Shown one piece after another: positions 33,056 through 58,500 of a stretch of DNA of 64,000 nucleotides (its first letter is position 1; the number at the start of each line of letters is the position of its first letter). The notes beneath the pieces were generated by a model, which saw only the letters and a program-made list of their open reading frames with translations, was not told the origin of the DNA and ran no database searches. The position numbers and the translations under genes are program-made. The DNA comes from Tetrahymena thermophila SB210 (Eukaryota; Ciliophora; Oligohymenophorea; Hymenostomatida; Tetrahymenidae). Location of the stretch: contig NW_002476149.1 in NCBI RefSeq assembly GCF_000189635.1, positions 62,001 through 126,000 on the forward strand, given 5' to 3'.

Positions 33056-35680
33056 TCAGATTTAGGCATAGCTAACTGTTTTTTTATTTTTACTTACATT
33101 TTATTATTTTTCTTATTCAATAATTATTTTTGTACTAAACTAGCCCAAATCCTCCTCTTCTTCAGGTACACAATTTAATGAAGGTATTCCATTATCATCA
33201 ACCTTATATTTTATAAATAATTCATTATATTAAAATTACTGTTAAATAACTACTTTGAATTTAAGTCCATTTTAATTTTATTGCAAAGAAGACAAAAATG
33301 ATTTATTTATAGATGATTTTCTACTCCTAAGTATACTTTAAGGTATCGGCTAGTAAGTTCTCATACCCAATATGTGACTTGTTTCATTATCAGACAATTC
33401 AACTTTACTACCTGTATCATTTAACTAATTTTTCTTTTTTTTTTGCTTAGAAAACTCATCTTAAATATCAAACAAGTCAGTATGGTCTTTTAAGTTTAAT
33501 TCATTTTAAAAATATGTTAATTTGATGTAAATTAATTCGTTTGTGTTAATTTAATTTTTACTATTCAAAATATCAACAATGGAAATGCAGTTCTTAGAAA
33601 GTCCTGACTGTAGAGGGTTGTTGCTCTCTTTAATTAATTTTCTGTTTTTTGATTAATCTAATTCCAAGACATACATGTCAGCATTTACAAACCCCTTTTC
33701 TTGGTATCCACCAAAAATTATAATTTTAGATCCAATTATTTAGGATGCAAAAGCACATTTTTGAAGATTCTTAAGACCATTTTCTTCAACACTTATCCAA
33801 TTTAATGTTTCTAAGTCTAGGAGGCATATATCACCAAGAATTCCATTTTAGCTAATATTCATATTATAGCTTCTATAGAATTTTGAATTATCATTTCTGC
33901 CACCATAAACAATAAGTACATTTAAATCATCATAATAGTGCTGAGAATGTTGATATCTTGCCATTGGAAGTGCTCCTTTAACATCAGGTACTACCCACTT
34001 AAGTGGTTTTTATCCTAGCTTTATTATTCTTAATTAATTTGTTGCCTCTCCATTTTGTAGCAAACCTCCAAATACGTACAACCCTTCTTCTTTGACTTTT
34101 CTAACTTTTTTATCTTTTGTTTTTTTAATTTCTACATTATAATAAGGATTTTCAATTTTAGCATCTCCTCTGAAAATAGGGGTCATTTAGTGGAAAGCGA
34201 GACCTTTATCTAATCCTTCAACTTACAATATGTTACTTTAGAATATCCATAAAATAAAAAGTTATCATTTTTGTACAAATATTTTGATAAAAATAAATAA
34301 ATAAATAAAATACCATTTAAAAGTTTCTAAATTAATTGATACAAAATCGTATAAATGTTTATTATAACTGTTGATACCTCCAAATATAAATAAAAACTTG
34401 GTAATTAAAACTGATGCATGATTTCTTCTATTTTCAATAATATCTCCGAATGTCCTAATTTAATTCCAACTATTCTTAGAAAATTCGTATATTTAAATAT
34501 CATTAAAACATTATCTCATTTTAAGATGAGAATTATATTTTTTTTCTCCACCAAATACAAGCAAGTCTTTTTTATATCTTTCATATCATAAAAAATAATT
34601 AAAATATAAAATATTTAAATTTCATTTTACAAATGAGCAGTATGACCATATCTTCCTTCTTAAAGTTAAGCTGCTTAATCCATATTTGTCCATTTCCATG
34701 TTTGAAAATCAAGGTAGCACATTGTGTTAAATAAATCTAAACCCATGCCTCCGTATAAATATAATCTCTTATTTAATAAATAAAGATGCTAAAAATTTAA
34801 TATATATAATATTTCATACTCCATCAATGTATGTAAGACTCGGATATTCTCTTGTCTCAGGTCTCCAACCATCATCAGTGATACAATACCAATAAAATTT
34901 TAAATTTGTTAGCTTTTTCTCATTTTATTCTTTATTTTAATTGTTAAACGGATCATCGTCTTCTTCGTTATGCTATTATGGCATCAGATTACCTTCAGTT
35001 CCAATAACTGGAGATGTGCTTTACTACTTAGCCATATTATTTAACACTTAGTCATGATTCTTAACCTTAATCTTAGGTAAATTAAATTTTTATTCCCTTT
35101 TTCTATATGAGTCAATCAATTAATCATAATTTTCTGTATAGTTTTTTTAAGCTTAATTTACTAGGAAATTTTTTTAAGTTCTATTGAAAACAAGTTGATT
35201 TGACATCACTTCTCTTGTATTGCTCTAATCTTAATTCCTTTTAGCAAATGACTACCAAGATTAGTTATTAACTAGAATTGTTGACATAGGAGTAAAACTC
35301 TTCATAGATAAGTAGTCTTTACCTAAAGACTTATTCAAAAGATCATCTGGTGCTGCTAAAAATGCCATATGAGTTGAATTAAAAATTTATTCAACTGTCC
35401 TTACATCAGATGAATTTATAGTGCTTTATAAGGCAGATTAAGTCATAAAATCTTTTTTTTTATCTAATCTTTACCTAAACGTTTGCCTTACTTATAACTC
35501 AAATTATTTTTTGCTAAAACTCTTTGTAGAATGTTAGAATTAACTTTTATTTTTAATTGGAGAATCTGTATCTTATTTTATGTAAAATTTTTTTTGAGAT
35601 GAGGAAACTGTTTAGTTAGGATTGTAGGTTATTTTTTCCATGGGTTAATCTAAATGAAGTCTAGACGTTGAAAACATCAT
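33056..35680 (-). CDS. Kelch-repeat beta-propeller protein
   Basis: Four exons; the start is the second of two adjacent ATGs on the coding strand's 5' side (35680). About 250 disordered N-terminal residues precede Kelch repeats, each with a Gly-Gly strand, Tyr and Trp: LYLYGGMGLDLFNTMCYLDF...WKW, LLVFGGEKKYNSHLKM...SWNQI, FLFIFGGINSYNKHLYDFVS, LYVFGGLLQNGEATN, VLIVYGGRNDNSKFYRS...LNWI, and KIIIFGGYQEKGFVNADMYV. Six blades can be seen, enough for one propeller. The C-terminal 150 residues are Ser/Gln/Asn-rich with an acidic VPEEEEDLGQ end. A 31-bp intron at 34789-34819 is the shortest clear one in this gene. Kelch propellers are protein-binding platforms; no partner or catalytic domain (BTB, RING, F-box) is present, so the role is open. 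Confidence 0.87.
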
Positions 35681-36866: not shown

Positions 36867-39800
36867 TCAATCATCTTCATCATCTTCTTAATTAGAACTA
36901 GATTTGTTGGCTTGATTGTTATTGTTTTTATATTCGTTATATTTGTTCTTTTTTTTCTTATTAAATATTTATGCTTACTTTCCTGTTTAATTTACCTTCT
37001 TTTTGTTGTTTTATTTTTTATGTATTTAGTCTGAAAAATTGTTATTATTAAGTTGCATTTAAGAAATCATTTTCATATTTTGTCTATCATTTTAACTGCC
37101 TGCACTTTGAATTGTAGCCTTTGAACTTTACGAATCACTTTTCTATATTTACAAAAATGAGGGAAGTGATTAATTAGACTTTTATTTTACAGAAGAAATC
37201 TAATCAGTAAAATCAAAAGTGCCTCTTTAGCTTGAAATATTACTTATCATACTAATATTAACTTGTTGATGATTTTGTCTTTCAGTATATGCTTCTTTTA
37301 ACGAAGGTTTATTTTGTTTTTTATGCTATGAGTACGGATAAGAATTAGGAGACTAAGCATGAGGGTGATTTTAAGGAGTAGAAGTATAGCTTTGCTAAAT
37401 AAATGTAGTTGGTAAATGATGAGGGATGGACTAATGGTGGTGGAGATGGTGGGAATATTAATGAAGAATATTTTGACTTGGAGAAATAGGTATTATAGGT
37501 GGAGAGTTCAAACTACCTTAATGGCTTATTTATTAATAAGGCAATATTATCAAACTTTTATCTGGTGTTCTATGTTAATTATTTTCTCTATTCGGTTGAC
37601 TTTTAAGCGAAGGTTTATCATCTATATCATCGTCTTAAACTCTTAATTCATTTTTATCAAAGAAAATATTCTAAGTATATTAATACTTTGATTACATTTC
37701 ATCAATATCATCATCTTCATTAAGCTCTCCTTCTTCATCTTCTTCTTGATAACCATCTTCTTCGCTGGATAATTTTTCGCTTTCATCTACTTAGAATTTT
37801 TAATTTTTATTGACATGAGATTAGTGATGACCATGCTAATTGTGATGATTATGATTATGATGATGATGATTTCTGTGAGTTCCATGATTTGAATGTTATT
37901 CTTTCTCTTCATCTTAGACTTTTTAAGGTAAATACTCCTCTTCTACAAATTCATGATGAATTTAAGTGGATTTTTTAGATTTTTATTTGCTCGAAGATCT
38001 ACCTGACTTTAATTCTTAGCTAAGAGAATCATCTAATCTGCATTTCTCAGTATTTGTAGAAGAAACCATATCCTATAGGTTTGCAAAATTCCCTCCTTTT
38101 GATAACTCAAAGGACATATCTTTCTAGATTTGAGGGACTTCTGATTATATAGCAAGAGAAGATTGAATATATTCTTTTGTTTCTTCTGTAATTATTTCTT
38201 CATCTTTTTTCTTCTATTTTGTCTAATTTATCTCTTATTCTTTTTACATTTCTAATTAATTTATAAATTCATCATCTGACTTTGTTTCATCTTCCTCTTC
38301 AATATTGTTTACTTAATATTCAAATGGAATTCCATTACTTGAATAATTTTATTCATTTGAGTATAACGACGTCTTCAAATTCTGAGCACTGCTACTATTT
38401 TTTGTTTACCTCACTGATTAAGATTAACTATTAGATAAACTTTCACCTTAAATTTCAGTTTTACTTTATCCAAAAAGTTCTTTTAGAAAATCAGAACCTT
38501 CTAATTTTTCTAAATCTCTTTCTTAGGTTTTATCAGTATATTAGTTATTTGAGAATTCCTCATCGTCATAATCTTCATCATCTAAGCTTAAGCATTGTTG
38601 AATTTCTTCTTGAATATGCTTATCTTAATATTTAACACTCTTCTTTTAGGACTTTTTCAATTTTCTATTTGAAGTACCATTATTGTTAGACCCTAGCATT
38701 ATGCTATTATTTAGATTTGATTAACTGTTTTACAAATTATCTTAAGTAAGATTAACAAATGATCCATTACTTTATTAACTTTAATACTGATTTCTGGCAC
38801 TAATATGATTGCCACTAGGCTCTCTTTTATGCATTCTTTCTTCATATTCATCTTATCCTAGTTCAAGTTGGTAATCTTAGTTCTAAAAAATATCTTCCTA
38901 TCCAAATTAATTATAATCTGAATTTTTATGGTAATATGAGGTATCGCTATTAGCTTGATCTTTCGGGACCTAAAAATTAATAGCCTCATTAGAATAGCTA
39001 GTTTTATTAACTTCAGGATCACTTTATACAATTATTTAACTGTTTTCTACCTTATTTCTTCTACTTAGTGAGTGTATCCTGGCATCCTTAGAGCTTGACT
39101 TTTGTTGTTCATTCTTGCTATTCAATTAAGCTTAGTGAGCAGAAGAATGAGCAAAAGATTTTTTGTGTTAGCTACTGTTACCAAATTACTAAAATAAAGC
39201 AATATTTTAAATGTTAGTAGGAACCATTTATGGTGTATTTCCAGTGCTACTGCTTGAGTTAATTTCTTGAATCATATTTTTAGACATGTTTGGATGCGAC
39301 ATATGATGTTAGTGGCTGGAACCAGAAAAAGAAGAATGGTGGATCTAAGGATTATGGGGGAATTACTAATTTGTTACATATCCACTATTAGAATGTTAGA
39401 ATTGAGTATGGTGTTAGCTATGATAGTCATGCAAACTCGATTATGAAAGTAAATTTCTAGAGTTCTTAAGTTTTGAATAATCATGATTTTTCATAAGGCC
39501 GCTTGAAGTGATCTTAAGGAGATTTTATTTATTGTTTTAATGAGCTTAATGAGAGGTTAAAGAGCTCTACTTCTTTTCTGCATATTGATTTACTATTTAA
39601 GATGGTTATTAATTATACAAAATCGATGTGTTAGAACTTTCCATATTATTCCCAATTATCATTGATTAAGAAGTATTTTAATTTAATTTATTGTAATGAT
39701 AATAATTTGAGTGGAGTTAAGTTTAGCTTTTCTATTACTGTTAATTTTTGGTTGAATAAAACTAATGCTCTTAGTTAAAAACTTAGCTATTTGGAAGACT

Positions 39801-42800
39801 TGATTCCATTTAGAATTAGTTATAATACTAGTTTTATTCACCAGAATAGTTGGTTATATAATTTTGTCTTGCACTATTAGGATGTGATGTAGATATTAAA
39901 CTTGAACTAAAGTTTGTATTATGTTAATTTACTTACATCATATTAAGAGGTGGTACTTAAATTTAAGTAGGATGATTTGAAATAAATTCTCTTGATTTTT
40001 AATTTGTAATCATAGGCTTTTTTCTCGTTTAATAAACAGTATTGTGTGCTCCAGGAATATTGCTAATCTGCTAAGTAAATGGACTGATATTTAAAGTAGA
40101 TTGTGTCTATAACATCATGTTTGGTTGTTAAATACTTGAATAAAATTATTTTGGAATTTTAGGATTACCAAACTTTTTGCAATATTATTCTATCAATTTT
40201 TTAGGATTTCCCTACGCTTTTTTATAGATTTTTTCAAATTATTTTCTATTCTCAAGAACTTTTTTGATATTAATTTGTTCTAGGTCTAGTAAGGAATCTA
40301 AAAAGTTTAGTGATTCTTTTCTTGAAAAAAGTTTTATTTCATGATAATGCATATTAGATTTTATACAACTAAGGGGACAGTTCTTTTACTCTAAAGTAGG
40401 GCGAAGAGACTTTTGAGTAACAAGAATGTAGTGAATATCAAATTTGTTAATATAGAAGAATAAATACTCAAAAAATTTAATTTTATAATCGTTAGAGGGA
40501 TTAAAACTGTTAATAATAATGTCAAAATCATCGAAAATAAGTAGCATCTTTTTTTAATTTTAGAAATACTCACACACATCTTAGCTGAATTACAAACCAA
40601 GTAAGGACGACATCAAATTTCGTAAATCGTAATTATGGTTTGGGAGGTCTTTAAGACTAAAGTAATATACGCCATCGCAGAAAGTATTTCTAGTAAAAGT
40701 AAAGTAAGCAATCTATCCATTAAAAAATAAATTTTATAACAAATTAAAAAAATAATTTTTTTAATTTAAAATTTCAGTTTGAAAATAAATAAATATGTTT
40801 TAATTTATTAATTTAAATCAAGTTATTTTATGTAAAAAACATTTAATTTTATAAAGCGAAATCTCATTTATAAGTTAATTGAATTAAAACTTTAATTTTA
40901 ATTGAATTCACTAATCATTAATTATCAAATCAAGAAATATAAAAATGAAATTACTTGTTAAGCCACTATTGTTTTTCCTATTCCAACTTGTCCGTATATA
41001 TTTACACAGCTTTCTTGAATTTTTTACAAAATTATATAAATATCTTGCTTTCTTCCAGAGATTCTGAGGAAATTTCTGTTTAAATTTTAAGGAGGACGTT
41101 CAGATGTTATATCAATAATTTAACCCTTTCTGAATTCGTATTTGCTTTTAAAACAATTATTAAATATAAATAAATTTTATCAAATGCAATTTAAAACTAA
41201 TTTACGCATCCATCCAGTCATCTGATAAAAAGAGATCAGGGCCTTTTCCAAGAATTTATTCAAAAGTCTACTCATCCCTTATGTCTTCAGAACATACTGT
41301 AATAGTAGCTTCTACCATTTTTTGTTTGGCATAATTAAACGCTCTCCTAATATGCGATTAAGGATTGGGATCAGGTCGATCTGATAATAATTAAGTGAGA
41401 AATTCAAACTAGAATTATTGAATGGCAAACTCTCTTAAATAATATAAATAAAAATCTTCATATTCATCCTCTTCTATTTCGTTGCTGAATTCCTATTCCT
41501 TAGTGTTTTTGCTTAATCCTTATTTCTTATTTTTCTTACTAGTATTACTTTGATCTCCATTTTCTTTTTCTTGATAGCTTGGGTTCATTATCGTGGGTCT
41601 TCTTCCAAAATGAGGCCTTGTATACTTTTTGATAGATTTGAATTAAAAAGCAATAATAGTTGGTCTTCTTCTTAGTTCAGAATCTCTGTCTACTTGATCT
41701 AATTTTTAAATATTATTCGTTTGAATAAAATGAAATCATTCATTTATTTTTTTACCTTTGTATTCGTCTGTGGATTTAGATTTTGTCTATTTTTTATCAG
41801 GGTTGTTTTACATTTTTTTAATTGAATCATTTACTTTATCAATAATTCTAAAAAACATCTCTTTTAATTTTAAACCATTAGGAGTGCAAAGCATTAGAAT
41901 TTCTATTTAACCAAATTCCTCATAATGTTATTTATAGTATTCTTCCATTTCATTTTCTTTATACTTTCTCATCAAAGGAAGCTAATCTTCCTCAACAATA
42001 ATACCATCTTCTTCCACATCATCGCAAGTGATGCACATAAACTTTTAATATAATAATAATTACCTTAAAACAAATAAATAATTGTAATATTTTACTTTAG
42101 AACCTCTTTATAGACATTCTTTAAAATGTTTTATAGTCTATATTTCGAATTTGAGATTAAGTTCCTTTCCTAACTTGCTTAGCACATCTATATTAATATA
42201 CATAAATTTACATTTTAAAAAAACTAACTTACTTACAAATTAAAAATATAACCTGTTATTCTTCTTTTAAATGACTAATTTAAGCGTATGATATGTCCGT
42301 AGGGAGTTTTTTTATCTTAATATATTATTGGAGCAGCTCTCATAAATTAGAAAACATTAGAACTAATGTGATGTAGTTGATCGTTAATTTCACCTAATAT
42401 TTTCTTGCAATCAGCCTCTAAGCTAGTTAATTTCCATATTTTAGAATTATTTAAAGCAGGGTCAATCATATCTTTTTTCAATTTAATTAGATTTTAAGTA
42501 TCTCTTGAGTTTTTGAGGCCATTGAGCTTTTTCTTGCAGTAAACTACTGTGGCTTGAATCATTAAGCTGTTAAGACCATTACTTTCGAAAACTTTGATAG
42601 CTTGTTCGAGTTCTTAGAATCTGAGCTAGAATTATGTATTGAATTCAAGTTCAAATAGAGAGTTCAACAAAATTAGCTTGCTTTCTAAAATATTTAAACA
42701 ATCAGGACCCATTTTTATATCTTTTTTATCTTCATCAATAGATTCTTCTTTTTTCTTAAGTTCTTTTATTCTCAGCAAAAGCTTAGGTATAAGACTTTCA

Positions 42801-45800
42801 AGAATTAGATTTACTTTGCCTTTAACTCCATTAAATCTAGGATCTTTGGGTATTTTAAGAATTTATTCAAATGTATGAGAAAGCTCATTTTCTTTATTTT
42901 TTTTAAAAGATACAAATATCAAGTAAAACACAACAAACTGCTTCTCTATATCCATCAATTCTCTATTAAATTATCAAAATCCTAAAATTAACCAAAATTA
43001 ACAATTAGAAATAAATTTACATAAAAACTTCATTTTTATCAAATTCAGTAAACTTTTTATCTACTTCTTCATAAAAACTCTCTATTTCATCTCTATGAAT
43101 AACATCTTCTATCGAATTATTCATGTGGTCTGATGAAAACTTTTCAATGTACAAAGATATTTTGAGAAACAAAAGTTTTGATTTTGCTACTAAGAACTAA
43201 AAGTTTTAATGGTTTTTAAGTAATTCTTCTATGACTTACTCAGCTTATACGCACTGCTCTTCACTAGTAGAAAGTTCATCTAATAGTTTATGAATTGAAG
43301 GTATATTTACACATAAATCTTAGATATGCTTCTTCATTTTTTACTTTTGCTTCTCATCACATTGCTTACTGTCTAATTTATTATAAGTAATTTCATTAAT
43401 AAAAAAATAAAAAAATAAATTTTTTTTTATTATTTACTAATATGAGCAATGATTTATCTATGATCTTCTACGTTTAGATACGAGTAAAAGTTTCCCTCAT
43501 GCAATTTAAATACATCAATGGGAGTTAATGATGAAAATAATTTCTACTCAGTCTTATCTGACAATTTTTTCTCTAAATTAACCGAATCTCTATGGACGAC
43601 ACTTATTTTCTTATCTTCACTGAAACCTCTAGCGTTGCTATGAAGATTTTCAGGTGTAGTATCGTAATATTCATTATCTGATTCACCAGTTTCTTGCACT
43701 TTATTAGATTTCATTGATTAACATTATGAAATTTTGTGGAGTTAATGCTAAGGTATGTAATGAACTCCATACAAGCCAGAATGACTTAAGGAGCAGTACT
43801 CAATTATTCTTTCTTAATGATGAGATTTTTCTTTTAAATTATGAAGTAGTTTTCTAGAAAATATAGAAAGATACTCTAAAATCAGAATCTCTTTATGAAA
43901 TAAATCTTATCTGTATTCTTATTACTTGAGCTATTCGACAACAAATTTTTTAATCCTAAATACAACTACATCGAACTTACGAGAAACACTCATCCAGAAA
44001 TATTATCCATTTTTAAATTTCTTATATCGATAAAATTCTTCGTGTTGTTAATCATTATCGAAATCATCTTCTTCCATATTGTCTTCTTCTTATTTTAATT
44101 ACTAAAATATTGTGAGCCTCTTACTCTGCATTCTCTTTAACCCACTGATTTCAGGTATTTCATGCTGAGCTAATTCTGATGTCCTATTGGCTGCTATTTC
44201 ATTTGTATAAAGAGTCAAACATTCCATCAGTTTTACCCAATCATGTGGTATTTTTTTCTTTTTTTCTAAAAATTTTAAATCTTCTATACTTACACCATGA
44301 GGAAATAGACTAATTAACAAAAGCATATCGTAGGCTTATTAGTTTGTCTGTCTTAAATCTCTATTAATTTAAATAGTCCATTAATTATAAAAAATATTTA
44401 TTTTATTTTTATTAATGTTAAAAGGTAATTTTATTATTTAAGTTTATGCTCAAAAAAAAAAAACAATAATTTACTTCATTAAAAGGTTGAAAGCAGTAAA
44501 GTCTTTTTGTCTTTCATTAATTTAGTTATTTTTCAGTGATGTTAATATTTGAGAAATGTCCATATTTTCACTTATATTTTAAAGGGCTTCCATTATGGAT
44601 TTAGGTGATTTTGGCATAATTTTAATTAATTCTGACAATTATTCATTGAATTAAGGGTTATTTGAGTGCTCACGAATGGTATCTCCTGCATAGAATTCTA
44701 TTAGTTATTTTACATAAAAATCACTTAGGTTTCCAAGAGTGATTTATGGAATTTAGCCTTAACCAAGTTTTAAATCAAACTTTTCATGAGAAATAATTAA
44801 AAATTTAGCTGTAGTATTTTAAGCTAACTCGTTTATTGTTGTTTCGAATTTAAATCTATTGTTTTTTATCAAATCATCACAGTTATCAAGAATAAACAAA
44901 ACCTTTTTATCCTTTAAGTGACTATATGCCACTTCCTTTGTATGATACCCAAGTCTCATTTTTTATTCAAATTTTGTAATTTTTGTTTTCATTCTTTCAA
45001 AATCTTCAAAAATAATCTCAACTACTTGCCCTCTTTCTTTAAGGTGCCTTGCTACTTTTTTTGCAACAGCAGTTTTTCCTGTACCTAAATCTCCATGAAG
45101 AGCAACAAATCTGAATTTTATTTTAGTATTATTCATAAAAGCTTTATAGATTTTAAAGATTTCCATATTCCTAATTTTAAAGATAAAATTTTTTTTAAAT
45201 GATATTTTATTGAATTTAACTTACCTTCCAAATATTTTGCTTTGGTCTTAGAAGATCGGATGATTAAAATCAAGATTGCTTTTTTCTATAATATTTCCTT
45301 CAGGCAAGTCTGACATTATTTTTTAATCTTCTTAGTCTTCTCTTTTAATTAATCTAAATTTAAGTGACTCGTCATGAGGAGTTTCTGATCCGTGGCAACA
45401 GCAAACAAATAGTGGTTCATTATTCTGTATTACCTCTTCATAATAGTCTTCATAGTTATCTTTATATTTTTTAAGAAAATCGTTTGCCCATTCACAAGTG
45501 TATTCATGTATCATTTTCTTAGAATTAGGACATTTGCATTTCGGTTAAGGTAAGTGCTATTCATGTGCCTTATCAAAACCATTATTCATAGCTTCTTCAA
45601 ACCTTTAAATTAAAATAAAAAATGTAGACTTAAGAATTAGTAAGTATAATACCATAAGCAATTTTAGTCATGAGAATGCGCACAGCAACAAGTAAAGCAA
45701 CCTTCATATTATTTAGCTTGTAAGGATATTTTAGCACTTTCAAATGATTCTAAAACAGATCGGCCTGAAAAGATATTCATATAAAAGCTACTTGAAAAGG

Positions 45801-48084
45801 TTAAAGCTGCTTTATCTTCAATTTTCAAATCAGATTAAACTGCAATTACAAATGGAATTCCAGCTTCATAAAAAATTTTTCCTACTTCCTCAGAGTGACA
45901 AGCATTAAAAAAAACAAGTTTAACATTACAATTTTTTTACTTTAAAAATTCAGAAAATCTCTTGCTTGTAATAGCATCGAGCTTTGATTCCTCATCTTCA
46001 AAGGCAAGGTAATATTGCTATTCTTTATCAGAATAATCTCCATGACACATAATATGTAATATTTAAGTGTTTCTGTTGAATGCCTTTTCCAAATTATCTA
46101 AACTTGCTACAACAATATCTAATTTTATTTATTTATTTGTTTCTTTTAAAAATTCATTTAGTTTTTGAATTTCTTATTCATAATCAACAGGATCTCCTGC
46201 AGGTAAATACTACTGTTAAGCCCCTGTTTACTAAGTAGCCTAAATTTATAATTTTACTATAGGTTCACTGTACATAATTGTCATATCTGTCATATTAGAG
46301 GTTTTTCCTTTTAAACCAGGATTGGAATTTCCACCTGAATTTTAGCTTTAAAAAAGTTTGCTATTATCAGAAGAATTTCTAAATTTACTGTTTCTTCTTT
46401 AATAATCTCTTAATACTGGTTTTCTAACCTATCCTTCTATACTTTTATTTTCTTTGTTAGGTAATAAATGAGTGGAATTAGGTATTTTATTTTTCATGAA
46501 ACTAATAGAAGAAGAACTATCTCCTTAAGCGTCATGTGAGGGTTTGTTGCTAGATGTTTAGAATTGTTAAGGATCAGGTGATATATGGCTTGGTCTATTT
46601 TTAGAATTTATAGAGTTTTGCCCAAGAACTTTATTTGGAATGTTCGAACTTAAATTACTGCCTGATGATATTTTTTTTTTATTTTAAAGCTGGTCTATAT
46701 CATTTGCCTTTGCTTAAGCTTCAGATGAATTAGGCTAAGAAATCGTAATAACCTTATTGGGAACAGGTTTGACAATGTTCTTAAAGAAATCAATCTCAGG
46801 AGCATCATCTTGAGGTATATTAGAAAATAATATTGGAGCTTTTACTGTAGAAGATCCTAATTCTTCGTTTTCTTTGCTATCTTTAGGATTGCTTGGAATT
46901 TTAATTTAAAATATTGGTTTTTCTTTGTTATCAATGTCAGTTAAAGAGCCTTGCACGTTGTTAATCATCAGGGAGTTCTCTTGATTTTTCTAGCTATCAC
47001 TTTTGCTCTATAATCCATTATTGTTAAATATGCTTGATGTTTGCATCTTCTTTGAATCTATGTGAACTATAGAAGTTAAATTCTAGTCAGATAGATTAGA
47101 ATTAGCTTTATTACGAGTTTCATCATCTTTTATCAAATTTCCAAACATATTTATTACCTATTTTTAATTTTAGGATGTTTATTCTGTCTCAAATTCTTTC
47201 ATATGTTAGGATTGCTATTTATTCATTTCATTGCTGAATAAACTTTCCTTTGTTTCTTGCTTTTTAAAGTCAAAATCAATACTTTGCTAAATGAGCGAGC
47301 TATTAAACTAATGTCTTGGCTCACTACTCTGCATATTTATATTAAAATTTTATTATGAATTAGCTAAATGGTTATGTTGAGGCTTAAACTAAAAACTCTA
47401 CTCCATAAACTACTAAGATGCACTAAAACTTTAACTTCTTGGTATCATTCCCGTAAAATGCATAGGTTAATTTTATTTATTTTCTACCTATTATATTTAT
47501 ACTGCAAGAGCATTGTAATAGTCATTTAATGTACTTAAAGTAGTTTAAACTAAATTATTAACTAAATCTCTTTGCCTTTCTATCTAATTATTTAATGTTT
47601 CTTCCATTATATCTTTCAGATAAATCTCATTATCATATTAAAAAAATCTTAACATATCGTTCTGTCTCTATTAAATTTTATCTACTTTTATATTTATTTA
47701 CTCCATGCTCTTAAATAAATTTTAAATAACTTCATTTTCTTAAAATACTTGCAGATCTCCTTTTTACTACTCCAAAAGAAGAATAATTTCTGTTTCTATT
47801 TACTCTTCCTCATCTATTGTGAAATCTATTCCAAAATTGTTTTCGCCAATAGTGATCCAATATATGTCATTTTTTAACTTTATGTTGTTTTCTTAGAACT
47901 TTGCATTATCATTTTTAAGTAACTCTACAAGCATATCGAAAGTAAGAATAGTTATTTCACCTTCGTTTATGTGATCGCTTAAATCTATTAAATGCCACTA
48001 ATAATTTTCATCATCTAATCTAATGCTAACTTCTTCTTCATGTCTCGCATATCTATATTTGATAAAGAACTATTTTTCTCTCAT
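36867..48084 (-). CDS. giant two-module CHAT-STAND (NLR-like) protein
   Basis: About 3500 residues from ATG 48084 (in-frame TGA just upstream) to TGA 36867-36869. Order: N-terminal domain of about 105 residues; Gln/Ser-rich linker; CHAT protease domain (45700-46300) with HIMCHGD and FFNACHSEE; a Cys/His cluster (EGCFTCCCAHSHDQNC ... CCCHGSETPHDES); NB-ARC ATPase with GDLGTGKTAVAKK and LFILDNCDDL; winged helix (LLISLFPHGVSIEDLKFL); helical repeats. A second CHAT-like domain (41280-42365) and second NB-ARC (P-loop YGQVGIGKTIVAQ, Walker B LLIFDDFDIII) follow. The last exon, about 3.9 kb, ends in a Gln/His/Ser-rich tail. I find no TGA between the modules and no AT-rich spacer: the frame runs ISQCQSMKSNKVQETG across a Met at 43714 where a second gene might have begun. 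The neighbour gene aligns across that same point. STAND proteins are signal-sensing ATPase switches; CHAT is a caspase-like cysteine protease fold. Cytosolic, by lack of signal or TM. Confidence 0.82.
40150..41130 (-). other. NB-ARC ATPase domain of module 2
   Basis: It begins at FLRISGRKQDIYIILQKI. Walker A is VNIYGQVGIGKTIVAQ (Lys codon 40973-40975). After an intron come RNTFCDGVYYFSLKDL, Walker B KKMLLIFDDFDIII and the sensor strand IHYILVTQKSLRP, all in family order. It ends near AQGNPKKLIEQYCKKFG; no winged helix is visible after it, and the disordered tail starts instead. Confidence 0.78.
41280..42365 (-). other. degenerate CHAT domain 2 of the giant protein
   Basis: FQFMRAAPIIYQDKKTPYG and ELNLKFEIQTIKHFKECLQR match the N-terminal half of CHAT domains. 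Where an active copy reads 'HFxGHG' this one reads FMCITCDDVEEDGIIVEE (42010-42045), so the His is gone. The Cys-strand reads EILMLCTPNGL; a Cys (41886-41888) remains at the aligned place. A basic linker of about 80 residues has replaced the strand after it, before the terminal helix SHIRRAFNYAKQKMVEA. Confidence 0.62.
44100..45225 (-). other. NB-ARC ATPase and winged helix of module 1
   Basis: IFGR leads into the NTPase: Walker A HGDLGTGKTAVAKK (Lys codon 45074-45076), Walker B KVLFILDNCDDLI, a KFLIISHEKFDLKL sensor-like strand and a small helical part. The winged helix DMLLLISLFPHGVSIEDL follows at 44100-44330. A 54-bp intron at 45171-45224 sits just before the P-loop. Confidence 0.82.
45700..46300 (-). 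other. CHAT domain 1 of the giant protein (catalytic residues present)
   Basis: The domain starts at about TIMYSEPIVKL. The catalytic His is in ILHIMCHGDY (codon 46042-46044) and the Cys in LVFFNACHSEEVG (codon 45898-45900). The family's rear part follows: GIPFVIAVQSDLKIEDKAA, TFSSSFYMNIFSGRSVLESF. Spacing and both residues fit an active clan CD peptidase. Substrate unknown. Confidence 0.82.
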
Positions 48085-49201
48085 TCTTTATAAATTATAT
48101 CTTAGCTAGTAACTTCACTTTCTAATCTACTGAGCTTGTCAAAGAAAGTTTTTGAGTAATCACTCTTAGACCTTTGCCAATCTCTTGTTAAGAAAGTCTT
48201 GTTTTATTCTATAAATATATTTAATTAAAGGAGTTTACTTAATCTTTTTGGTAAATTAATACCCTTAAGCTTTTTTTATTTTATGAGAATATTAATTTTT
48301 GTTAAAAAGTCATTACTACACATAGCTAAAATGTTAAGAGGATTTAAAAAAAAGTAAATGATATTGCATGATCGTTTAGATTTGCTGATGAAATTGCCTG
48401 TTAATACAACATAGATACTGTAGAAATTTAAGTTTAGATGTATACTATTCGTAAAATTTCATAATACTGCTAATAATAAAAGAAAACAAATAATATGTGA
48501 CTTAACTTAAATTGAAAATAATATTTCAACTAAAATTCTAAAAAATTTCTAATTTGCAGTCAAACGCTTGATTGGTATTTAAGTTCATTCATTTAAAATT
48601 TTACTTTGTTTAAATAAATCAAAATAGAAATATATTAATAAATGTTAATTATTAAGATAAAAACTCGAAATTTCATTAAAATTAATTAAATTGAAGTTTC
48701 AAATAAATAACCATGTTTGATATTCTGAAAACAGATACAATTTTAAAAGTATTTCAATATATTTTCCAAATTAAAAATTATACAATTTTTTTAAATTTAT
48801 TAATTTAATCCTAATTTTCAATTATAAATTTTAAAATAAATTTATAGGAAAAGCAAAATACCATATCCCCTCTAACCTCTTAAGTAACTTACAAATCTCA
48901 AATATTAAAGAGGTTAATAGCATAAATTTTTTAAGTGCTTAAATTAAAAAAAGATTTTAGATGAAAGCCATTACAAATACATACAGTATATTTACTTATT
49001 ATAAAATAATAATTTAAAAATAATTAATAGTTTTTGTTAAATATCTTTTAAAATAAGATTAATTTGATATGAAACAACAATACATTTTTAAATAATTTTA
49101 TTATAAATTTAAATGTTAATCTATGTACATAATAAATAAATTAATTTAAATAAAATTAAGTGATTAAGTTAGTTAGTAATTGAAATGATTGGTAGGTTAT
49201 G
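48085..49201. other. intergenic between the two CHAT-STAND genes
   Basis: A 1.1-kb AT-rich spacer: promoter side of the giant gene and 3' side of its paralogue, both on the minus strand. Short frames only. Tandem head-to-tail arrangement with this gap fits an old gene duplication. Confidence 0.5.
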
Positions 49202-52200
49202 TCATGCATTAGTTTATATCGAAATTTTATAATCTTTAGGGTCTTACATTTTTAATTAGTCATAAGCTTTTTCAAATGTTTCTTTTATGTTTTCAGTCAA
49301 ATTCTATTTTTTAACAAATTTGTTGAGTTATAAATAAAGATTATTGAATTAGAATATTTATCTGAAATAAAAAATCATAAATAACAAATTATGATTTCTA
49401 AAAAAAATAATTTAATTATTACTTCTTTTGGGCCAGATTTTACATGCTTGATAATTTCAGATTCTATTCTTTAAGGTATTGTTTATGGATCTGTTTTTTT
49501 CTACTTTTAAAGAGTTTTATTTTTCCAGAATTATTTAGCAAACTGTTTAAGGCACTATTCCTTCAGTTCATTTAATTCATATTATGTGAAAACTTTAATA
49601 CTTTCCTATATAGATTCTACATATTTTTCATTAAATTCCTCATTAAATTAAAAGCCTTCAAAGCAAGCTGTAACAAATTTGATCTTGGAAATCAATATAT
49701 TTAGTTTTGTTTTTGGTGTTTCATTTAAATAATCAAGACTCCTCCTCAATAAATATTAATTATCTTTACTATTTTGAATTTCTAAATTACAACCATCTAT
49801 TTTTAACAACTCTTAAGGATAGAAGTTCAGTTAGTTTATTAAATAAGAGCATATATCCGTTAAATTGGTAAAGTTCTCTTAAATTTTTTGGGAGCTAATT
49901 ATTTCTACTAGATCAATTATTTAAGATAAATCGTAACCGCCATGTAGATATTTAATTAGCTTTTATTCAACCATAACCTTAATTGTGTATGCTACGAAGA
50001 AAACTTTTTCTGCCTATAAGATAAGCCTATTTTATTAAAGTTTTTCAATATTAAAATTAAGTTTAAAATTAATTAAGAATTATTTATTCTTCAAAAAATT
50101 GCTATATTTCAATAATGAATTATTTAAGTTTTTTGATCATTATTTATTTTTTTTTAAAGCTTGTTAAATAAAATAAAAAGAAAAGTTCTTACAAAATACT
50201 TTTTTACTGCTTGAATTCAGAATGATTTGCTAAACTTTAAATTGAATCATTTAAACACTTAAATTGCTTAAGCAATAATCTAAATTCTTCTTAATTTTTT
50301 GTTTAAAAATCAAACTAATCGAAGCATAAATTTGCTTAAATAAACTAAATTTTGAGTTTTGCAAGCAAGAAAGGTAAGTTATCAGGATAGTTTGTTAGTT
50401 CATCCAAAATATTAATAGCTTTCTCGCATTACTCCATTGCATCTTCTTTATGATCCAATAATTTATGAATAGAAGGTATATCTACACACAAATCTTTAAG
50501 TGCTTCTTTTAGTATTCTCTTTTCGTGGCAGTGAGATGAATCTATTTTATAATTTAATATTTAAATAATTTTAGCATAATTAACATTTACTCATAAATTT
50601 TATCAAATTCATCAAATCTTCTTTTTTCAAGTACACATACAAGTTTTATTCATGCAATTTAAATAAGCTCTCCTAATTGTTTCTATATTTCTTGAATATG
50701 TGCTCTTCAAAACTTTCTGAGTATCCTCTGTTTAAATCAGGGAGTTTTTAACCGTTTGTTTAATTTTTATCAGAATCATCTTCTTCACCATCATTTTGAA
50801 ACCAGTCTTTCTTAAATGATACTTTAAATAATCCAAAATCAACGATAGATGAATAATCAACCATTTTAAGTTTTTAATATCTGTCACACTTGATACAGTC
50901 AAGCATCTTTTTTGCAAAATAAGATAAGTACTCTAAAATGAGTACTTCTTTTTAAAGGAGATCTATCGCATATTCTTCTTTTGAATATAGCCATCTTGGG
51001 ATATTTTTTTTTATCTTAAATTGAATAAACTGTAAGTCATTTCTAGACACATTCATCCAAAAGTATTATCCTATTTTAAAATGATGATGGTCAGAAGAAT
51101 GTGAACTATTAGTAGCAGAAAAGCTACTGGTTTCAGCTGTATTATTAGGCTCTATATCAGAATTTTCCTCACTCTCTGTCTCTTCAAATTTCAAAGTTAA
51201 ATTTGGATCAATTACTTCTTTCGATGTTAACTGGAGCATAATTTCTTCCCAGCTAGAGGGGATTTTCTTTTTAGAAGCTAGATATTTTAAATCTTCAACA
51301 GAAACACCATGAGGAAAAAGTGAAATAACAAGCAGCATTTCATATTTTTAGTAGTTTTCTTTTAATTTTCTTTATAATTTTGAATAAATTTTAAATTTAT
51401 TCATAAAGAATCTTAATTTAAAAAAGAAGTTGTTTACTTCATAATGAGCTCAAGAGGATCTTAACTAACAAGTAAATCTTATAAATTTGAGCCATTTTTA
51501 ATACTTTAAACTATTTCCATCACAAACTTTGGTAATATTGCTCTTTTATCTAAAATCTAATCTAGTGTATTTGAAAAGCTAGTATCTTAAGCAAGAATTC
51601 TAATTTAGTTGCCAATGTGATGACTTATAATATCAAAAGCTACTTTTTTATCTAAGGCCTTGAGCTCTATGTAATTTATGACGGCCTCATTTAGCTTTAA
51701 ATTAGGCTTAAAGTGAGTGATAATTATAAATTTCACATTCAGCGAAGTATCTGAGAGCTGCTTTGTGAAATCTTCTAGGTTTTTATTTATCAAATCATCG
51801 CAATTATCCAAAATCATTAAAGTGTAGTATGGTTGTGATCCTTCTTTTCCGTTTTTAAATTTTTTTAATTTTGTTTTAAATTTAGAAATACCTCGATCAA
51901 CATTTTCAAAATCTTCTATTATAATTTCATTCACAACTTCCCTTTCTTTTAAGTGCCTATTAAAAAAAATCTTTAAAATGAATTTAATTAGCTATTAAGT
52001 TACCTGGCTACTTTTTTTGAAATTGAAGTTAAACCAGATCCTCTTTCACCATAAACCACAACAAATTAGCTATTATGGCTGCAATCATTTAACGAGTTAA
52101 AAATTTCGTACATTTCTACATTCCTTTTTAATAAATTTAAGAGAGAAAGTTACATTTTATAATTGAATTATTTAGATTATAAGCTTACCTGCCAAATAAT

Positions 52201-54376
52201 TTGAATTAGCTTTTGAAGTTAGAATTGTACATATCAAAATTATACTTAATATTCATCTCTCCTTTTTCAAAATTAAAACTATAATCTATTGTATCGTTTA
52301 AACATAATAACTTGAATTTAGCAGATTCGTCATGTGTAGTGCTTTCGCCTTAGCAGCAGCATCCGTATATAGGTTTATCAATAGGCAAATTAAATATTTC
52401 TTCCATCTTATTCTCATCTGAAATTACTTCAAAAAACTCTTTTATTTTATTGCAACTTTATTTGTGGTAAATTGGATTTTTAACACTGCCTTGCTTACTA
52501 GGATTATAACAATCACAAGCATATTCTTCATGTAATTTATGAGCCTCTTAATAGCCATGATCCATAGCATATTATAACCTAAAAATTTAAACAAAAGATT
52601 AAAAACATATTTTTACATTTAAAATATTTTTTTTTATTTAGTTGAGATATGTGGCCAAATTAATTACCATTCACATTTATCTGTATGTTGATGGGCACAA
52701 CAACACGTGTAGCAAGCCTAATGATGTTTTGCTACAAGGGCATCTTTAGCACAATTAAATGCCTACCTGATTGTATATCTTTTCATCAATCCCATGTAAA
52801 AAGAATTTGAAAAAATTTAAGCAGCCTTATCTTGTATCTTGAGATTTGATTAAACAGCTACTACGAAAGGTATTCCAGAATTTAAAAACATCAATCCCAC
52901 CTCTTCTGAGTGACAAGCATTTACAAATGTTAATTTAGGTTTCTCCTTTTTATTTTATAACAAAGTTTTAAACTATTCAGTGGTAACACATTTAAGCTCA
53001 CAATTTTTCTCTTCAAACTACAAATAATACTTTTAATATTCCTTATGAAAATCTCCATGGCAAGAGATATGAATAATTTAAGAATTAATAATTTCTTCTT
53101 CAAGATTATCTAAATTAGCAACTCTGATATTAATTTCACCATTATTTTTACACTTTTAAAAATAACGAGTCAGCTATAATATTTCTTGCTCATATTCAAC
53201 AGGTTCACCAGCAGGGTAAATAAATTTATTTTTCCTTACAACTAGAGGCTCGCTATACATAATTGACATACGAATTTGACTAGAGTTGCTGAAACTACTC
53301 ATTCCTTGCATCATTTAAAAATTTGTTGATGGAGGTTTCATAATAGGTGTTGTAGGAGGAAGTAAAGTATTAATATTTGCACTGTTAGCCGACTTAAATT
53401 TCACATGGGATGACATAGGGGATTTAGTTGTTGATTTATCTGTATCTACAATGCTATCTGATTTAGGTTCCCTCATAGTAAACATACTTCTTAAATCACT
53501 ATTAGATTTTGTATTATTGCCAACAGAAGCAGTTGGTGTCTCCTCTTGCCTATTTATATTGCTACTCATTTGAAATATATCCTCTGATGGACTAACTAAA
53601 TCTCCAAAAAAATTAACTTCCTCTGACTTTTAGCTTTCTTCTTACTTATTGTCCAAGGGAAATAAAATAATAGGTTTTTCAGAAGGGGTATCTTCTATCA
53701 TATTTCCGAATATATTAACTTTATTTGTAGATTTATTTGTTTAAGTTCCATTTCCAGTATTAAATCTAACGCTCTTACCCTAGTCCATAAAATTTTGTAA
53801 TTATTTGTTCAGTTAAAGTAAACTATTTTGCAAGTCATTTAGCTCATTTTAAAATGATGAAATTATCTAAAAATTGTATTATTTTTATTCTTCAGAATCA
53901 AAAAAAAACTGACTCATCATATTCCTAATTTAAAGTAATTCCTAATAAACAATCCCATTGAATGCTTGCTAATCAAAATTTTAGTTGTAGTTAGGATCTT
54001 GCAGTTATTCTTAATACTATTGCTATTCTAATTACTAATTTTATAGTTATAATAGCTATTACTAATTATCAAATTAATACTATTAAATTTTTTATATTAG
54101 AAGACGAACACCATTATCATAGCAGTAGCAACTATCTTCTTCGAATAGGTCTTCTACTTAAACATAAAAATGCTCTATATCCTCCCACTACTCGCTTTCG
54201 CTATTATAAACTTTAATGACATTTTTATCAAACTCAATCTCTTCATTGAGCAATATTTAAATAATAGTTTCTACATCTAAATCTTGGATATCTTTTTCTT
54301 CAATATAATTATTTAAAGGTATTTAATACATATCTTATTCATCATTATACTAGTAATAAATAGACAATTCTTTCAT
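49202..54376 (-). CDS. CHAT-STAND (NLR-like) protein with altered P-loop
   Basis: About 1600 residues, from ATG 54376 to TGA 49202-49204. It is a paralogue of module 1 of the giant gene and shares its order. N-terminal domain (MKELSIYYQYNDEQDMYQIP), a very Gln-rich coil, Ser/Thr/Pro linker; CHAT domain (52740-53275) with HISCHGDF and FVNACHSEEVG both intact; Cys/His cluster CYTCCCAHQHTDKC ... YGCCCQGESTTHDES; NTPase; winged helix LLVISLFPHGVSVEDLKYL (51270-51335); helical C-terminal part ending TFEKAYDQLKMQDPKDYK. Walker A reads YGERGSGLTSISKK: Leu (TTA, 52030-52032) replaces the lysine that binds ATP phosphate. Walker B TLMILDNCDDLI is kept. ATP hydrolysis is therefore doubtful while the protease centre looks sound. 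Short introns occur at the P-loop and near 50580, 50160, 49380, 52600 and 52140. Confidence 0.85.
52016..52080 (-). other. substituted Walker A motif
   Basis: The translation is FVVVYGERGSGLTSISKKVA. The paralogue reads HGDLGTGKTAVAKKVA at the same place, so only the critical Lys differs in class (TTA, Leu). Upstream and downstream frames are intact, arguing against decay of the whole gene. Confidence 0.85.
52740..53275 (-). other. CHAT protease domain (intact)
   Basis: Begins SIMYSEPLVVRKNK. His in IIHISCHGDFHKEY (codon 53057-53059), Cys in LTFVNACHSEEVGLM (codon 52913-52915), then FVVAVQSNLKIQDKAAQIF and SFYMGLMKRYTIRQAFNCAK. All family hallmarks are present in order. Confidence 0.84.
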
Positions 54377-55584: not shown

Positions 55585-58500
55585 TCAAATATTTTTTTTA
55601 ACATTTTTTACATTATTTTTTGAGGAATTTCTGAGTGTGTTAGAAGAATTAGGCTAACCTAAACACACTTACGATCCATTATTACTATTTAAGTTACTTT
55701 GTATGTTTACATTAATTTGCTGCTAAGGGTTATTGTTTCCCATTTAATTAAATTTTTAGTTTAATAGCTCCATTTATTAATATATTTATGTGTATTTTTA
55801 ACTCAATTAAGGCTAAAATATACTTCCATAAGAAGGTGAATTAAGCAAATTTCTATTATTTTATGAAGTACATTAATTTGAACTCATAAAGTTACTCTAA
55901 TATATTTAACTTGTGTTTCTGCTATTTAGCTCAGATGGCACCTATCCAGAAAGGAGAGGAGTGATTTTTCCTCTTGATAAACTTCTTTGGTTTGGACTTA
56001 AAGGGTTTGATTTATTGCTTAATGTATTGTAACCTCTTGGCATACTTTTATTTTCTATAGAAACCTTATTATTAAGGATTGATATTACAGAAGCAATATT
56101 CCTTGCTACTTAATGATTGATATTTTAATTTATTACTGCAGAGTGAATTTAATCATGATGGTCCCTAGGAGTTGGCTACAGAGAGCTACTTAACCTAGCA
56201 TTCGAGTTATCTATTTTATAAAAAAATAAAGTTTTAATAGGTATAATTCAGTCTTAAAATTAATTCTTGTTCTTAAACTTAACAATATCAATTATGGAAA
56301 TAAATTTTACTTAAGCTGTTTCCTGAGGTTGGTATTCTCATTTCCTTCAGTGGATTTGAAGGAGATACTGTACGCGAATTAGCAGCACTGGTAGCATAGT
56401 CTTTTATTTCTCTGTGTGATCCATTATCTTCAGGGAGTATAGCTTAGGATGATACCTTCGATAGATTTAAATCTTTTATTAATGGTATAGTGTAATGCAT
56501 CTATTTTTTCATTGAATTCTTATTGAACTCAATGCTTTATTTATTTGTATTGGATGTAGATGCAGTATTAATCAAAGTTTAAGATTAAATCTATTACTAA
56601 GTAGATTATAAAGAGACAGTTATTTAATCATTTGTATTTTAATTTTACTCTTACTTATTAGAATTTGAATCTAGCAATTTACTTAGCTTATTTATTTCAT
56701 TTTTAAGCTTAACTTAATCTTTAAGAATTTAAGATGATAAAGGAGATTACGAAATATTTGAACTGTTTGTTACCTTAGAAGCTGAGTCCTTTTAAATTTT
56801 ATCTATTTTTACAGAAATTGGCTGCTCATTATTATATTAATAGTATTTAGTTGACTCAAGGTGAATGCTAATACTTTTTCTCTCTTTATTTCCAGGGTTT
56901 ATTTATACTTTTTTAAGTTCCTGCTTTGTTGTTTCTTAACTTGAATTAGCACTTCTTCTATTACTCTCATATTTGTTGTCATTTACTTTATTCCCATCAA
57001 GTTGAGATACTTAAACTCTTTAAGAGCTTCCTTTTGGAGATAATTTTAAATTTAAATTTATAACAGCACTTTTCTTTGATTAAGTTGTTTAGGATTAATT
57101 TGTTGCTGAAGAATAAACATAATCAGTCAGCTATAAATTTTAAAATCTTTCTTTCTTAGTTAACTAACTTTTTAAACCAATGCTTTACTAGCCCTTGGGA
57201 GATAAAGATTTATTTTTAGAAAGAAAGTTATTATTATTTTGGTTTAAAAGAAAATCTGTTTTACTATTGCTTTCTAGCTTTTTTTAATCATTGTTATTTA
57301 CTAAATTTCCAAATTTACTTTAACCCTCAATTTTATCTATCTTATTTAAATTATCTATCTTACTTAAAGTATCATAATTAATTAAATTATCTAATTTACT
57401 TACATTTTATTGACTAATTTAACTTTCTTTTTTTTAAAAATTATCGATATAGTTTAGATTTTCTTACTTTTTTTGTTAATCTGGCTTCTAAAATATATCT
57501 ATCTTATTTAAGCTTTCTGTTTTAATTAAATTATCTGTTTTTTATTGATTTTCTAATTTATTTAGGTTATCTATTGGCAAATTAGACGAGCCTTTGCTAC
57601 TATATAAATTAATTTACACATTTTTAAGATGGTTGGTTTAAAGATTTGCTATATTTGTAGCTGAATTAGTGTGGGAATTGTTATTTTAAATCAATTTGGA
57701 ATTATTTCCATTTAAATTTTATTTAGAAGAAGAAGATACCTCTTTGTTACCAGAACCTCCTGAGTAATCTCTAATGTATGAAATGTAATTTTTATTTTTA
57801 TTGCTTGAAGCTTATGCTTCGAAGTTGTTAATTTGTTCTACTAATTTACTTTTAGGAGACTTTTACATTAATTGGTTATTATTTTAATTAGTTTAAATTA
57901 AATTTGGTTTTTTTTTTTGTTAGCAATTTGTTTTCTCCTTTTATATCTACTTTGTTTCTTTTGAAGCTTATGTGTTTTAAGTATTAAAATTTTCGCCTTT
58001 TGTTAATGTCACTTCATCTTTTTATTGGTCTTAAGGCTGGTTTATGTTGTAATTAGATCCTTATTAGATACTTCTTGATTGGAGTAAGCTCCTAGACATA
58101 TCAAATGCTTGATTACTACTGTTAATGTAGCTATAAACTCCTGAATTAGGTTAGAATCCTAATTTTGTAGAAGCAGAGCTCAAATTGATAGAATTTTTTT
58201 TAACTGGAGTGGATATATGATGTTAAGGATATTTTTAAAAACCTGCAATAATAGTATTTTGTGCAGGTGATTATGGGGTTACACTACCAACTGAAAAGCT
58301 TTCTTCCTTCACTTCTTTTACAAAATCTAACTATATACCAGAAGAAACTTTAGAATTTTAAAAATTCTTTCTCTACTTTTCGAAGGGCTTATTTTAGATA
58401 ACTTTACCTTCTTAGTTTGCATTAGTGACATTGGTGTTAGTTTAAGTTTGTACTTTTTATTCTGTGAAAATATCTAATTTTTATTTTTTTATTTGATAAA

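What the first reader, a model, noticed from the sequence alone, without database searches (positions are those of the whole stretch)
36867..54376. Tandem cluster of NLR-like CHAT-STAND genes in a ciliate
Two head-to-tail genes pair a CHAT protease domain with NB-ARC ATPase, winged helix and helical repeats. This is the plan of NOD-like and fungal STAND effector proteins, in which an ATPase switch controls a death or immune effector domain. CHAT proteases in bacteria are known executors that cut gasdermins or partner proteins. Adjacent paralogues with complementary losses look like a sensor/executor pair. Domains are seen; the role is inference.
Basis: partly seen in the sequence, partly recalled or inferred. 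Interest (0 to 1): 0.9.

Follow-up and report, generated by a model that had tools for sequence, protein, structure and literature searches.

The report
Tetrahymena NLR-like caspase-fold protease genes
A well-known single-celled lab organism carries side-by-side genes that look like immune or death receptors with a caspase-like protease built in, giving a concrete candidate for a caspase-like activity reported in this organism.

Summary
The genome is almost certainly Tetrahymena thermophila. Two minus-strand genes sit head to tail: A (54376-49202, 1523 aa) and B (48084-36867, 3467 aa). Both carry a CHAT protease domain (Pfam E 2.4e-10 and 3.1e-15) with the His/Cys dyad kept, then a Cys/His-rich cassette, a P-loop NTPase, a winged-helix-like stretch and a helical region. 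The CHAT of B models as a caspase-like fold, nearest to solved SAVED-CHAT. A and B are tandem duplicates with shared introns. B is one gene with two CHAT-NTPase modules, the second CHAT probably degenerate. A third copy on another contig repeats this plan. A lost its P-loop lysine. 'NB-ARC' is not supported; the NTPases of B score as NACHT/AAA/ATPase_2. A sensor/executor split is not supported, since both dyads are intact. The plan resembles fungal CHAT-NLRs, so this is a new variant of a known kind. The role, a STAND-gated protease, is inferred. No caspase/metacaspase (C14) match was found in the genome (limited sensitivity), while zVAD-sensitive nuclear loss is on record in Tetrahymena, disputed by others. 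The genes are testable candidates.

The parts
49202..54376 (-). Gene A: 8 predicted exons, 1523 aa; CHAT, Cys/His cassette, NTPase, winged-helix-like stretch, helical region
   Evidence: Exon-chain model, control; no transcript data
52697..53275 (-). Gene A CHAT domain; His440 (codon 53059-53057) and Cys488 (52915-52913) kept
   Evidence: Pfam CHAT 2.4e-10; alignments; residues checked
52189..52696 (-). Gene A Cys/His-rich cassette and linker up to FGR (contains an intron)
   Evidence: 16 of 26 columns invariant in three paralogues are Cys or His
51438..52123 (-). Gene A NTPase; Walker A reads GERGSGLT (Lys to Leu, TTA at 52032-52030); Walker B LMILDNCDD
49202..51369 (-). Gene A winged-helix-like stretch and helical region
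   Evidence: Alignment to B; structure model uninformative
36867..48084 (-). Gene B: 11 predicted exons, 3467 aa; two CHAT-NTPase modules plus a long low-complexity tail
   Evidence: control; same layout in third paralogue
45700..46278 (-). Gene B CHAT 1; His681 (46044-46042) and Cys729 (45900-45898) kept
   Evidence: Pfam CHAT 3.1e-15; model pTM 0.81; Foldseek to 8tl0 3.9e-12; residues checked
45233..45699 (-). Gene B Cys/His-rich cassette and linker (contains an intron)
44475..45232 (-). Gene B NTPase 1; Walker A GDLGTGKT, Walker B LFILDNCDD
   Evidence: Pfam NPHP3_N 4.7e-6 and AAA 1.5e-5 over cut-off; NACHT 3e-5 and NB-ARC 0.0023 below cut-off
43438..44360 (-). Gene B winged-helix-like stretch (ISLFPHGVSIEDLKFL) and following region
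   Evidence: 41% identical to A over this exon
42363..43372 (-). Gene B helical region
   Evidence: no Pfam family over cut-off (protein 5)
41206..42362 (-). Gene B CHAT 2, probably degenerate: CITCDD where CHAT 1 has IMCHGD; a Cys in ILMLCT
   Evidence: Profile-profile alignment to CHAT 1 in register but weak: E 0.0028, probability 11%; no Pfam hit (protein 6)
40148..41144 (-). Gene B NTPase 2; Walker A GQVGIGKT, Walker B LLIFDDFD (242-base predicted intron inside)
   Evidence: Pfam ATPase_2 5.1e-10 and NACHT 2.5e-8, both over cut-off
36867..40147 (-). Gene B tail of about 1090 aa, by eye rich in Gln, Ser, His
   Evidence: no Pfam family in this frame (protein 1)

Best explanation
These are STAND-gated CHAT cysteine proteases of a ciliate, receptor and protease in one chain. 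Shown: CHAT domains with both catalytic residues, P-loop NTPases behind them, tandem duplication, a third paralogue. Inferred: at rest the nucleotide-bound NTPase, the winged-helix-like stretch and the helical region hold the protease inactive. A signal sensed by the helical region or by the second module of B lets the NTPase exchange nucleotide and oligomerise. That brings protease domains together, and they cleave one or a few partner proteins, leading to death of the cell or of a nucleus, or to a defence response. B, with intact P-loops, is the likely switchable member. A, with a broken P-loop, would be a co-receptor switched by B, or one regulated without ATP turnover. The Cys/His cassette probably binds metal and couples protease to NTPase.
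For: CHAT over cut-off in A, B and the third paralogue D. His and Cys invariant in A, B and D and in A, B and three bacterial relatives, and aligned with the HG and NAC motifs of solved SAVED-CHAT 8tl0. Caspase-like fold: model pLDDT 79.8, pTM 0.81; best matches SAVED-CHAT, then DdvA, Csx29/TPR-CHAT, MALT1, caspases. NTPase families over cut-off in both modules of B. A and B align over 1486 columns at 31% identity, E 4e-173, with 5 of 7 introns of A at the matching place and phase in B. D (contig C282, 315866-322445) has the same double plan, and one open exon of D runs from the later helical region through CHAT 2 and NTPase 2, so B is one gene. Fungal NLRs with CHAT, and CHAT control of fungal gasdermins, are on record (passages).
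Against: No repeat family of the usual NLR sensor kind was recognised. Winged helix not confirmed by structure. NB-ARC below cut-off. The NTPase of A lacks the P-loop lysine, and in D the first Walker B position reads Lys, so ATP switching may be dispensable in two of three members. PDB sequence searches with the NTPases gave no NLR. No gasdermin by Pfam in the genome and no recognisable partner in the neighbouring open frames scanned. No expression, localisation or activity data.
Confidence: 0.68

Rival explanations
1. The genes are the caspase-like executors of programmed nuclear death in Tetrahymena conjugation: developmental, not immune. The NTPase senses a nuclear or mitochondrial signal and the CHAT cleaves substrates that lead to elimination of the parental macronucleus or of micronuclei.
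For: zVAD-fmk-sensitive nuclear elimination is reported (PMC4021357, passages), while caspase homologues were said to be absent from protists and the origin of such activities unknown (PMC2829475, passages). Peptidase_C14 gave no match in this genome, while separase (1 match) and C13 legumain-type proteases (14 matches) were found by the same tool.
Against: Other passages hold the process to be caspase-independent, through AIF and a mitochondrial nuclease (PMC2829475, PMC3191509). zVAD can hit other cysteine proteases (recalled). CHAT cleavage preference is not known to be after Asp (recalled). The tool's CHAT family search found only one of the three CHAT genes, so absence of C14 is not proven.
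Confidence: 0.15
2. The proteins are regulated proteases of an ordinary cell process, such as signalling, turnover or cell cycle in the manner of separase, with no link to immunity or death.
For: CHAT folds are also near separase (5fc2 at E 0.0031) and the anti-sigma factor DdvA ranks sixth. Only three copies were found, not a large diversified array.
Against: Tandem duplication, strong divergence and loss of NTPase motifs in single members resemble conflict-type families more than housekeeping ones (inference).
Confidence: 0.25
3. A is a sensor or decoy and B the executor of a fixed pair.
For: They are neighbours about 1.1 kb apart on one strand; A has lost the P-loop Lys and the second module.
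Against: A keeps the protease dyad, which a mere sensor would not need. Paralogue D has no CHAT neighbour.
Confidence: 0.12
4. A is a decaying duplicate of B without function.
For: P-loop lysine lost, second module lost.
Against: Open frame over 8 predicted exons and 1523 aa; CHAT 48-49% identical to B with dyad and Cys/His cassette kept.
Confidence: 0.07

Closest known systems
Fungal CHAT-NLRs (protease-bearing NLR or NLR-like activators of fungal gasdermins)
   Same: CHAT protease as effector of an NLR-type receptor in one chain; [quoted passage not shown]
   Different: Here the CHAT is preceded by about 180 to 600 aa and followed by a Cys/His cassette, the module is doubled in B and D, no WD40/TPR/ANK was recognised and no gasdermin found
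SAVED-CHAT of type III CRISPR (PDB 8tl0)
   Same: Best sequence and fold match of the CHAT domain, His and Cys motifs aligned
   Different: There the sensor is a SAVED domain (name from the PDB title and PMC11417357 passages); no SAVED family came up in the Pfam scans here
TPR-CHAT / Csx29 of Craspase
   Same: CHAT protease with caspase-like fold
   Different: RNA-guided partner and TPR; no STAND NTPase (recalled)
NACHT proteins of the same genome, some with WD40
   Same: NACHT-type NTPase in large proteins, some in tandem
   Different: Of three scanned, two carry WD40 and one neither WD40 nor other families; no CHAT in the rows shown, 25 of 36 for one of them

Membership tests
CHAT protease (PF12770) | Profile score over the curated cut-off | tested here: met
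   A 40.8, B 56.8, D 49.2 bits against 24; not met by CHAT 2 of B
CHAT protease (PF12770) | Catalytic His (HG) and Cys (NAC) | tested here: met
   Invariant in A, B, D and with three bacterial relatives; aligned to 8tl0. His motif absent from CHAT 2 of B
CHAT protease (PF12770) | Caspase-like fold | tested here: met
   Model of B CHAT 1 pTM 0.81; Foldseek E 3.9e-12 to 8tl0
CHAT protease (PF12770) | Proteolytic activity | not testable with these tools
   Needs an assay
STAND / NLR | P-loop NTPase with Walker A and B | tested here: met
   Met in both modules of B; Walker A Lys absent in A; Walker B altered in D
STAND / NLR | NACHT profile over cut-off | tested here: inconclusive
   Met in module 2 of B (34.4 against 26.7 bits), missed in module 1 (24.4), not listed for A
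STAND / NLR | NB-ARC profile over cut-off | tested here: not met
   12.9 to 19.3 bits against 23.5
STAND / NLR | Winged helix behind the NTPase | tested here: inconclusive
   Conserved in A and B, H-H-H-E-E order, but model confidence 38
STAND / NLR | C-terminal superstructure-forming repeats (LRR, WD40, TPR, ANK) | tested here: not met
   No such family for the helical regions of A or B; the best weak match in A was DUF1103, E 0.027, below cut-off
STAND / NLR | Ligand-driven oligomerisation | not testable with these tools
   Needs biochemistry
Gasdermin-activating CHAT-NLR | Gasdermin encoded nearby | tested here: not met
   No PF04598 match in the genome, none in neighbouring frames scanned; fungal-type gasdermins may escape this profile (recalled)

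The most novel reading that the evidence does not exclude
Ciliates run an inflammasome-like, protease-in-receptor system of their own: double-module CHAT-STAND proteins with a metal-binding hinge, which supply the caspase-like activity reported for programmed nuclear death in Tetrahymena, so that one enzyme family links self/non-self or damage sensing to killing of a nucleus rather than of a cell.
Probability: 0.12. Interest if true: 0.92.

Novelty: new variant of a known kind. Interest (0 to 1): 0.6.

Why it matters
Caspase-inhibitor-sensitive nuclear elimination has been reported in Tetrahymena without, in the passages I saw, an enzyme being named, and no C14 caspase or metacaspase turned up in this genome. 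Three genes with a caspase-fold protease under an NLR-type switch, in one of the best genetic systems among protists, turn that question into a knockout experiment. If immune instead, they would place receptor-fused caspase-like proteases in a lineage far from fungi, animals and bacteria.

Tried and rejected
Rejected: that the frame 36870-40817 is a gene of its own. The exon chain runs from B into it without a stop and the helical and CHAT 2 parts share an exon; in the third paralogue the later helical region, CHAT 2 and NTPase 2 lie in one exon. Rejected: NB-ARC as the family name. Weak: CHAT 2. Profile comparison gave E 0.0028 at 11% probability against the three-row profile and E 0.061 at 1% against the five-row one, each in the expected register but over one part only (an earlier pair, used a row with a typing slip at its first residues and gave nearly the same).

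Led nowhere: model of the winged-helix exon; PDB sequence searches with the NTPases (module 1 profile: 8 weak hits, best replication factor C at E 0.0035; module 2: one chance hit at 0.33); NCBIfam (EACC1-associated caspase 0.0061 for B, below cut-off; other rows below cut-off) and PADLOC (SAVED_CHAT 0.00034 for B; TRIP13 3e-6 and mad8 0.00021 for NTPase 1; nothing for the A frame); viral contigs (34 candidate stretches, no relative); genome contigs (108 candidates, 3 relatives; read as frames only, none with this layout, though one, L036, has a P-loop and a CHAT); the N-terminal 100 residues of A, B and D (no family over cut-off). Ciliate relatives could not be surveyed.

Papers, all in the open-licence library: Tetrahymena with 'CHAT domain' 0; ciliate, NACHT, STAND and NLR 27, 20 listed; Tetrahymena, NACHT and innate immun 8; CHAT, NACHT, STAND NTPase and eukaryot 4; 'CHAT domain', NB-ARC and protist 0; ciliate, NB-ARC and Tetrahymena 1; Tetrahymena thermophila and NOD-like receptor 11, 10 listed. 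By title and start of abstract none of the listed ones is about these genes; I did not read them for it.
Full report
WHAT IS THERE. The window reads as long coding frames only with TAA and TAG as glutamine: no ORF of 150 aa or more under table 11, 143 under table 6, many of these by chance. It belongs to a 101-Mb genome in 445 contigs. A telomerase stretch of that genome is identical to solved telomerase reverse transcriptase 2r4g at 101 of 102 aligned residues, the odd one at what looks like an exon edge. A longer frame agrees with 6d6v except at what look like introns and frame ends. I take it as T. thermophila macronuclear DNA; the species of those PDB entries is recalled, since the table shows only the molecule name.

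GENE MODELS. A small exon-chaining script (GT-AG introns, TGA stop, codon table from exons of this region) gives gene A, minus strand, 54376 to 49202, 8 exons, 1523 aa, and gene B, minus strand, 48084 to 36867, 11 exons, 3467 aa. Scores are 354 and 944; ten block-shuffles of each region reach at most 72 and 218, the opposite strand 14 and 72. The training set overlaps the genes, so the control is lenient, and no transcript supports the splice sites. A and B align over 1486 columns at 31% identity, E 4e-173. Of 7 introns of A, 5 lie at the matching residue and phase in B; the one inside the P-loop domain and the last one have no counterpart. That is the mark of a tandem duplication.

PROTEASE. 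CHAT is over its cut-off in both. The His of HG and the Cys of NAC are invariant in A, B and the third paralogue and in A, B and three bacterial relatives, and align with the same motifs in SAVED-CHAT 8tl0, profile E 6.4e-7. The CHAT of B, modelled from a five-row alignment, has mean pLDDT 79.8 and pTM 0.81. Of 23 PDB matches at E 0.001 or better, the first five are chains of 8tl0. DdvA, Csx29/TPR-CHAT, MALT1, two caspases and a metacaspase make up all but one of the rest, and that one, a ribokinase, is of another fold.

CASSETTE. Between CHAT and NTPase lies a stretch of 138 to 142 residues in which 26 columns are invariant among the three paralogues; 16 of these 26 are Cys (10) or His (6). 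With a Cys+His frequency of 13%, 16 or more would arise with probability 1e-8, with 20%, 4e-6 (printed before that script stopped). Aligners favour Cys columns, so this overstates the case somewhat. I infer a metal site. I know of no such cassette in other CHAT proteins (recalled, not searched).

NTPASES. B module 1: GDLGTGKT and LFILDNCDD, over cut-off for NPHP3_N and AAA. B module 2: GQVGIGKT and LLIFDDFD, over cut-off for ATPase_2, NACHT and AAA_22. A: GERGSGLT, the lysine replaced by leucine (TTA, 52032-52030), no NTPase family over cut-off. NB-ARC misses its cut-off everywhere. STAND is the fitting class by order of parts: protease, FGR-type linker, P-loop, helical lid, winged-helix-like stretch, helical region. 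The last three rest on sequence alone.

SECOND MODULE AND THIRD COPY. Behind its helical region B goes on with a stretch that aligns in register with CHAT 1 on its N-terminal side, ending at CITCDD where CHAT 1 has IMCHGD, and on its C-terminal side. Both comparisons are weak; I rate a degenerate CHAT as likely, not shown. Protein searches of the genome with the CHAT domains of B and of D found the same three genes; the first also gave one match at E 0.175, which I take for chance. Paralogue D, on contig C282, plus strand, 315866 to 322445, 2078 aa before one intron was corrected, has CHAT (6.5e-13), cassette, NTPase, helical region, a CHAT-2-like part and a second NTPase-like part. Its last exon of 3130 bases runs from the later helical region to the end, so the double plan is real in at least one gene of the family. 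In D the first Walker B aspartate of module 1 reads Lys, no NTPase family of module 1 reaches its cut-off, and NTPase 2 is interrupted in my model.

WHAT IT IS LIKE. Fungal NLRs with a CHAT effector exist, and some CHAT proteases control gasdermins; reviewers speak of contracted pathways in which the caspase is part of the receptor (PMC10197012 and PMC12881547, passages). The Tetrahymena genes look like that on anatomy. They differ in the doubled module, the cassette, the lack of a recognised repeat sensor and of a gasdermin. Membership in NLRs in the strict sense is therefore open.

ROLE. Reports of zVAD-sensitive nuclear elimination (PMC4021357, passages) stand against reports that the process is caspase-independent (PMC2829475, PMC3191509, passages). 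Peptidase_C14 gave no match in this genome; separase gave 1 and C13 14 matches by the same tool. But that tool's CHAT family search found one of the three CHAT genes, so this absence is only indicative. On this basis the CHAT genes are candidates, no more.

CONTEXT. Twenty further open frames of the window were scanned with Pfam, frames and not full gene models, besides ten in and beside the two genes. They show a Kelch protein downstream of B and, further off, a RING-variant protein, ORC2 and a protein kinase. The long frames next upstream of A (55588-59284) gave no family. None is an evident partner. The genome also holds 14 NACHT matches, some in tandem, at least two in proteins with WD40.

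Noticed in passing
G000:C185:100503-136246, also C260, C196, C110, C114, C75, C78, C182 (loci L003-L015, L037-L043): A family of NACHT proteins in the same genome: 14 NACHT matches, one of them in gene B, five of them 8-10 kb apart on C185. Of three frames scanned, C75 and C114 carry WD40 repeats, C182 has NACHT alone (for C75 NACHT was not among the 25 of 36 rows shown but was found). NACHT-WD40 arrays in a ciliate.
   Followed up: partly
window 54376-36867, linkers of A (residues about 220-260) and B (about 310-440): Short repeated motif by eye in the low-complexity linkers before CHAT: IFGNMI, FFGDLV in A; MFGNLI, FFKNIV in B (sequences). Possibly a docking motif.
   Followed up: no
window 48084-47665 and 54376-54077; L032 near 7960-8240: N-terminal part of about 100 aa in A, B and D, weakly alike, no Pfam family over cut-off.
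   Followed up: partly
window 8249-10048 (-), 5786-7296 (+), 33059-34264 (-), 61856-63208 (-): Ordinary genes: ORC2, protein kinase, Kelch-repeat protein, RING-variant protein.
   Followed up: no
L036:1678-4674: Bacterial (Chitinophagales bin) protein with a leucine-rich-like start, a GDGNAGKTTL P-loop and a C-terminal CHAT with VGHG and NACY motifs: by eye a Roc-like GTPase fused to CHAT.
   Followed up: no
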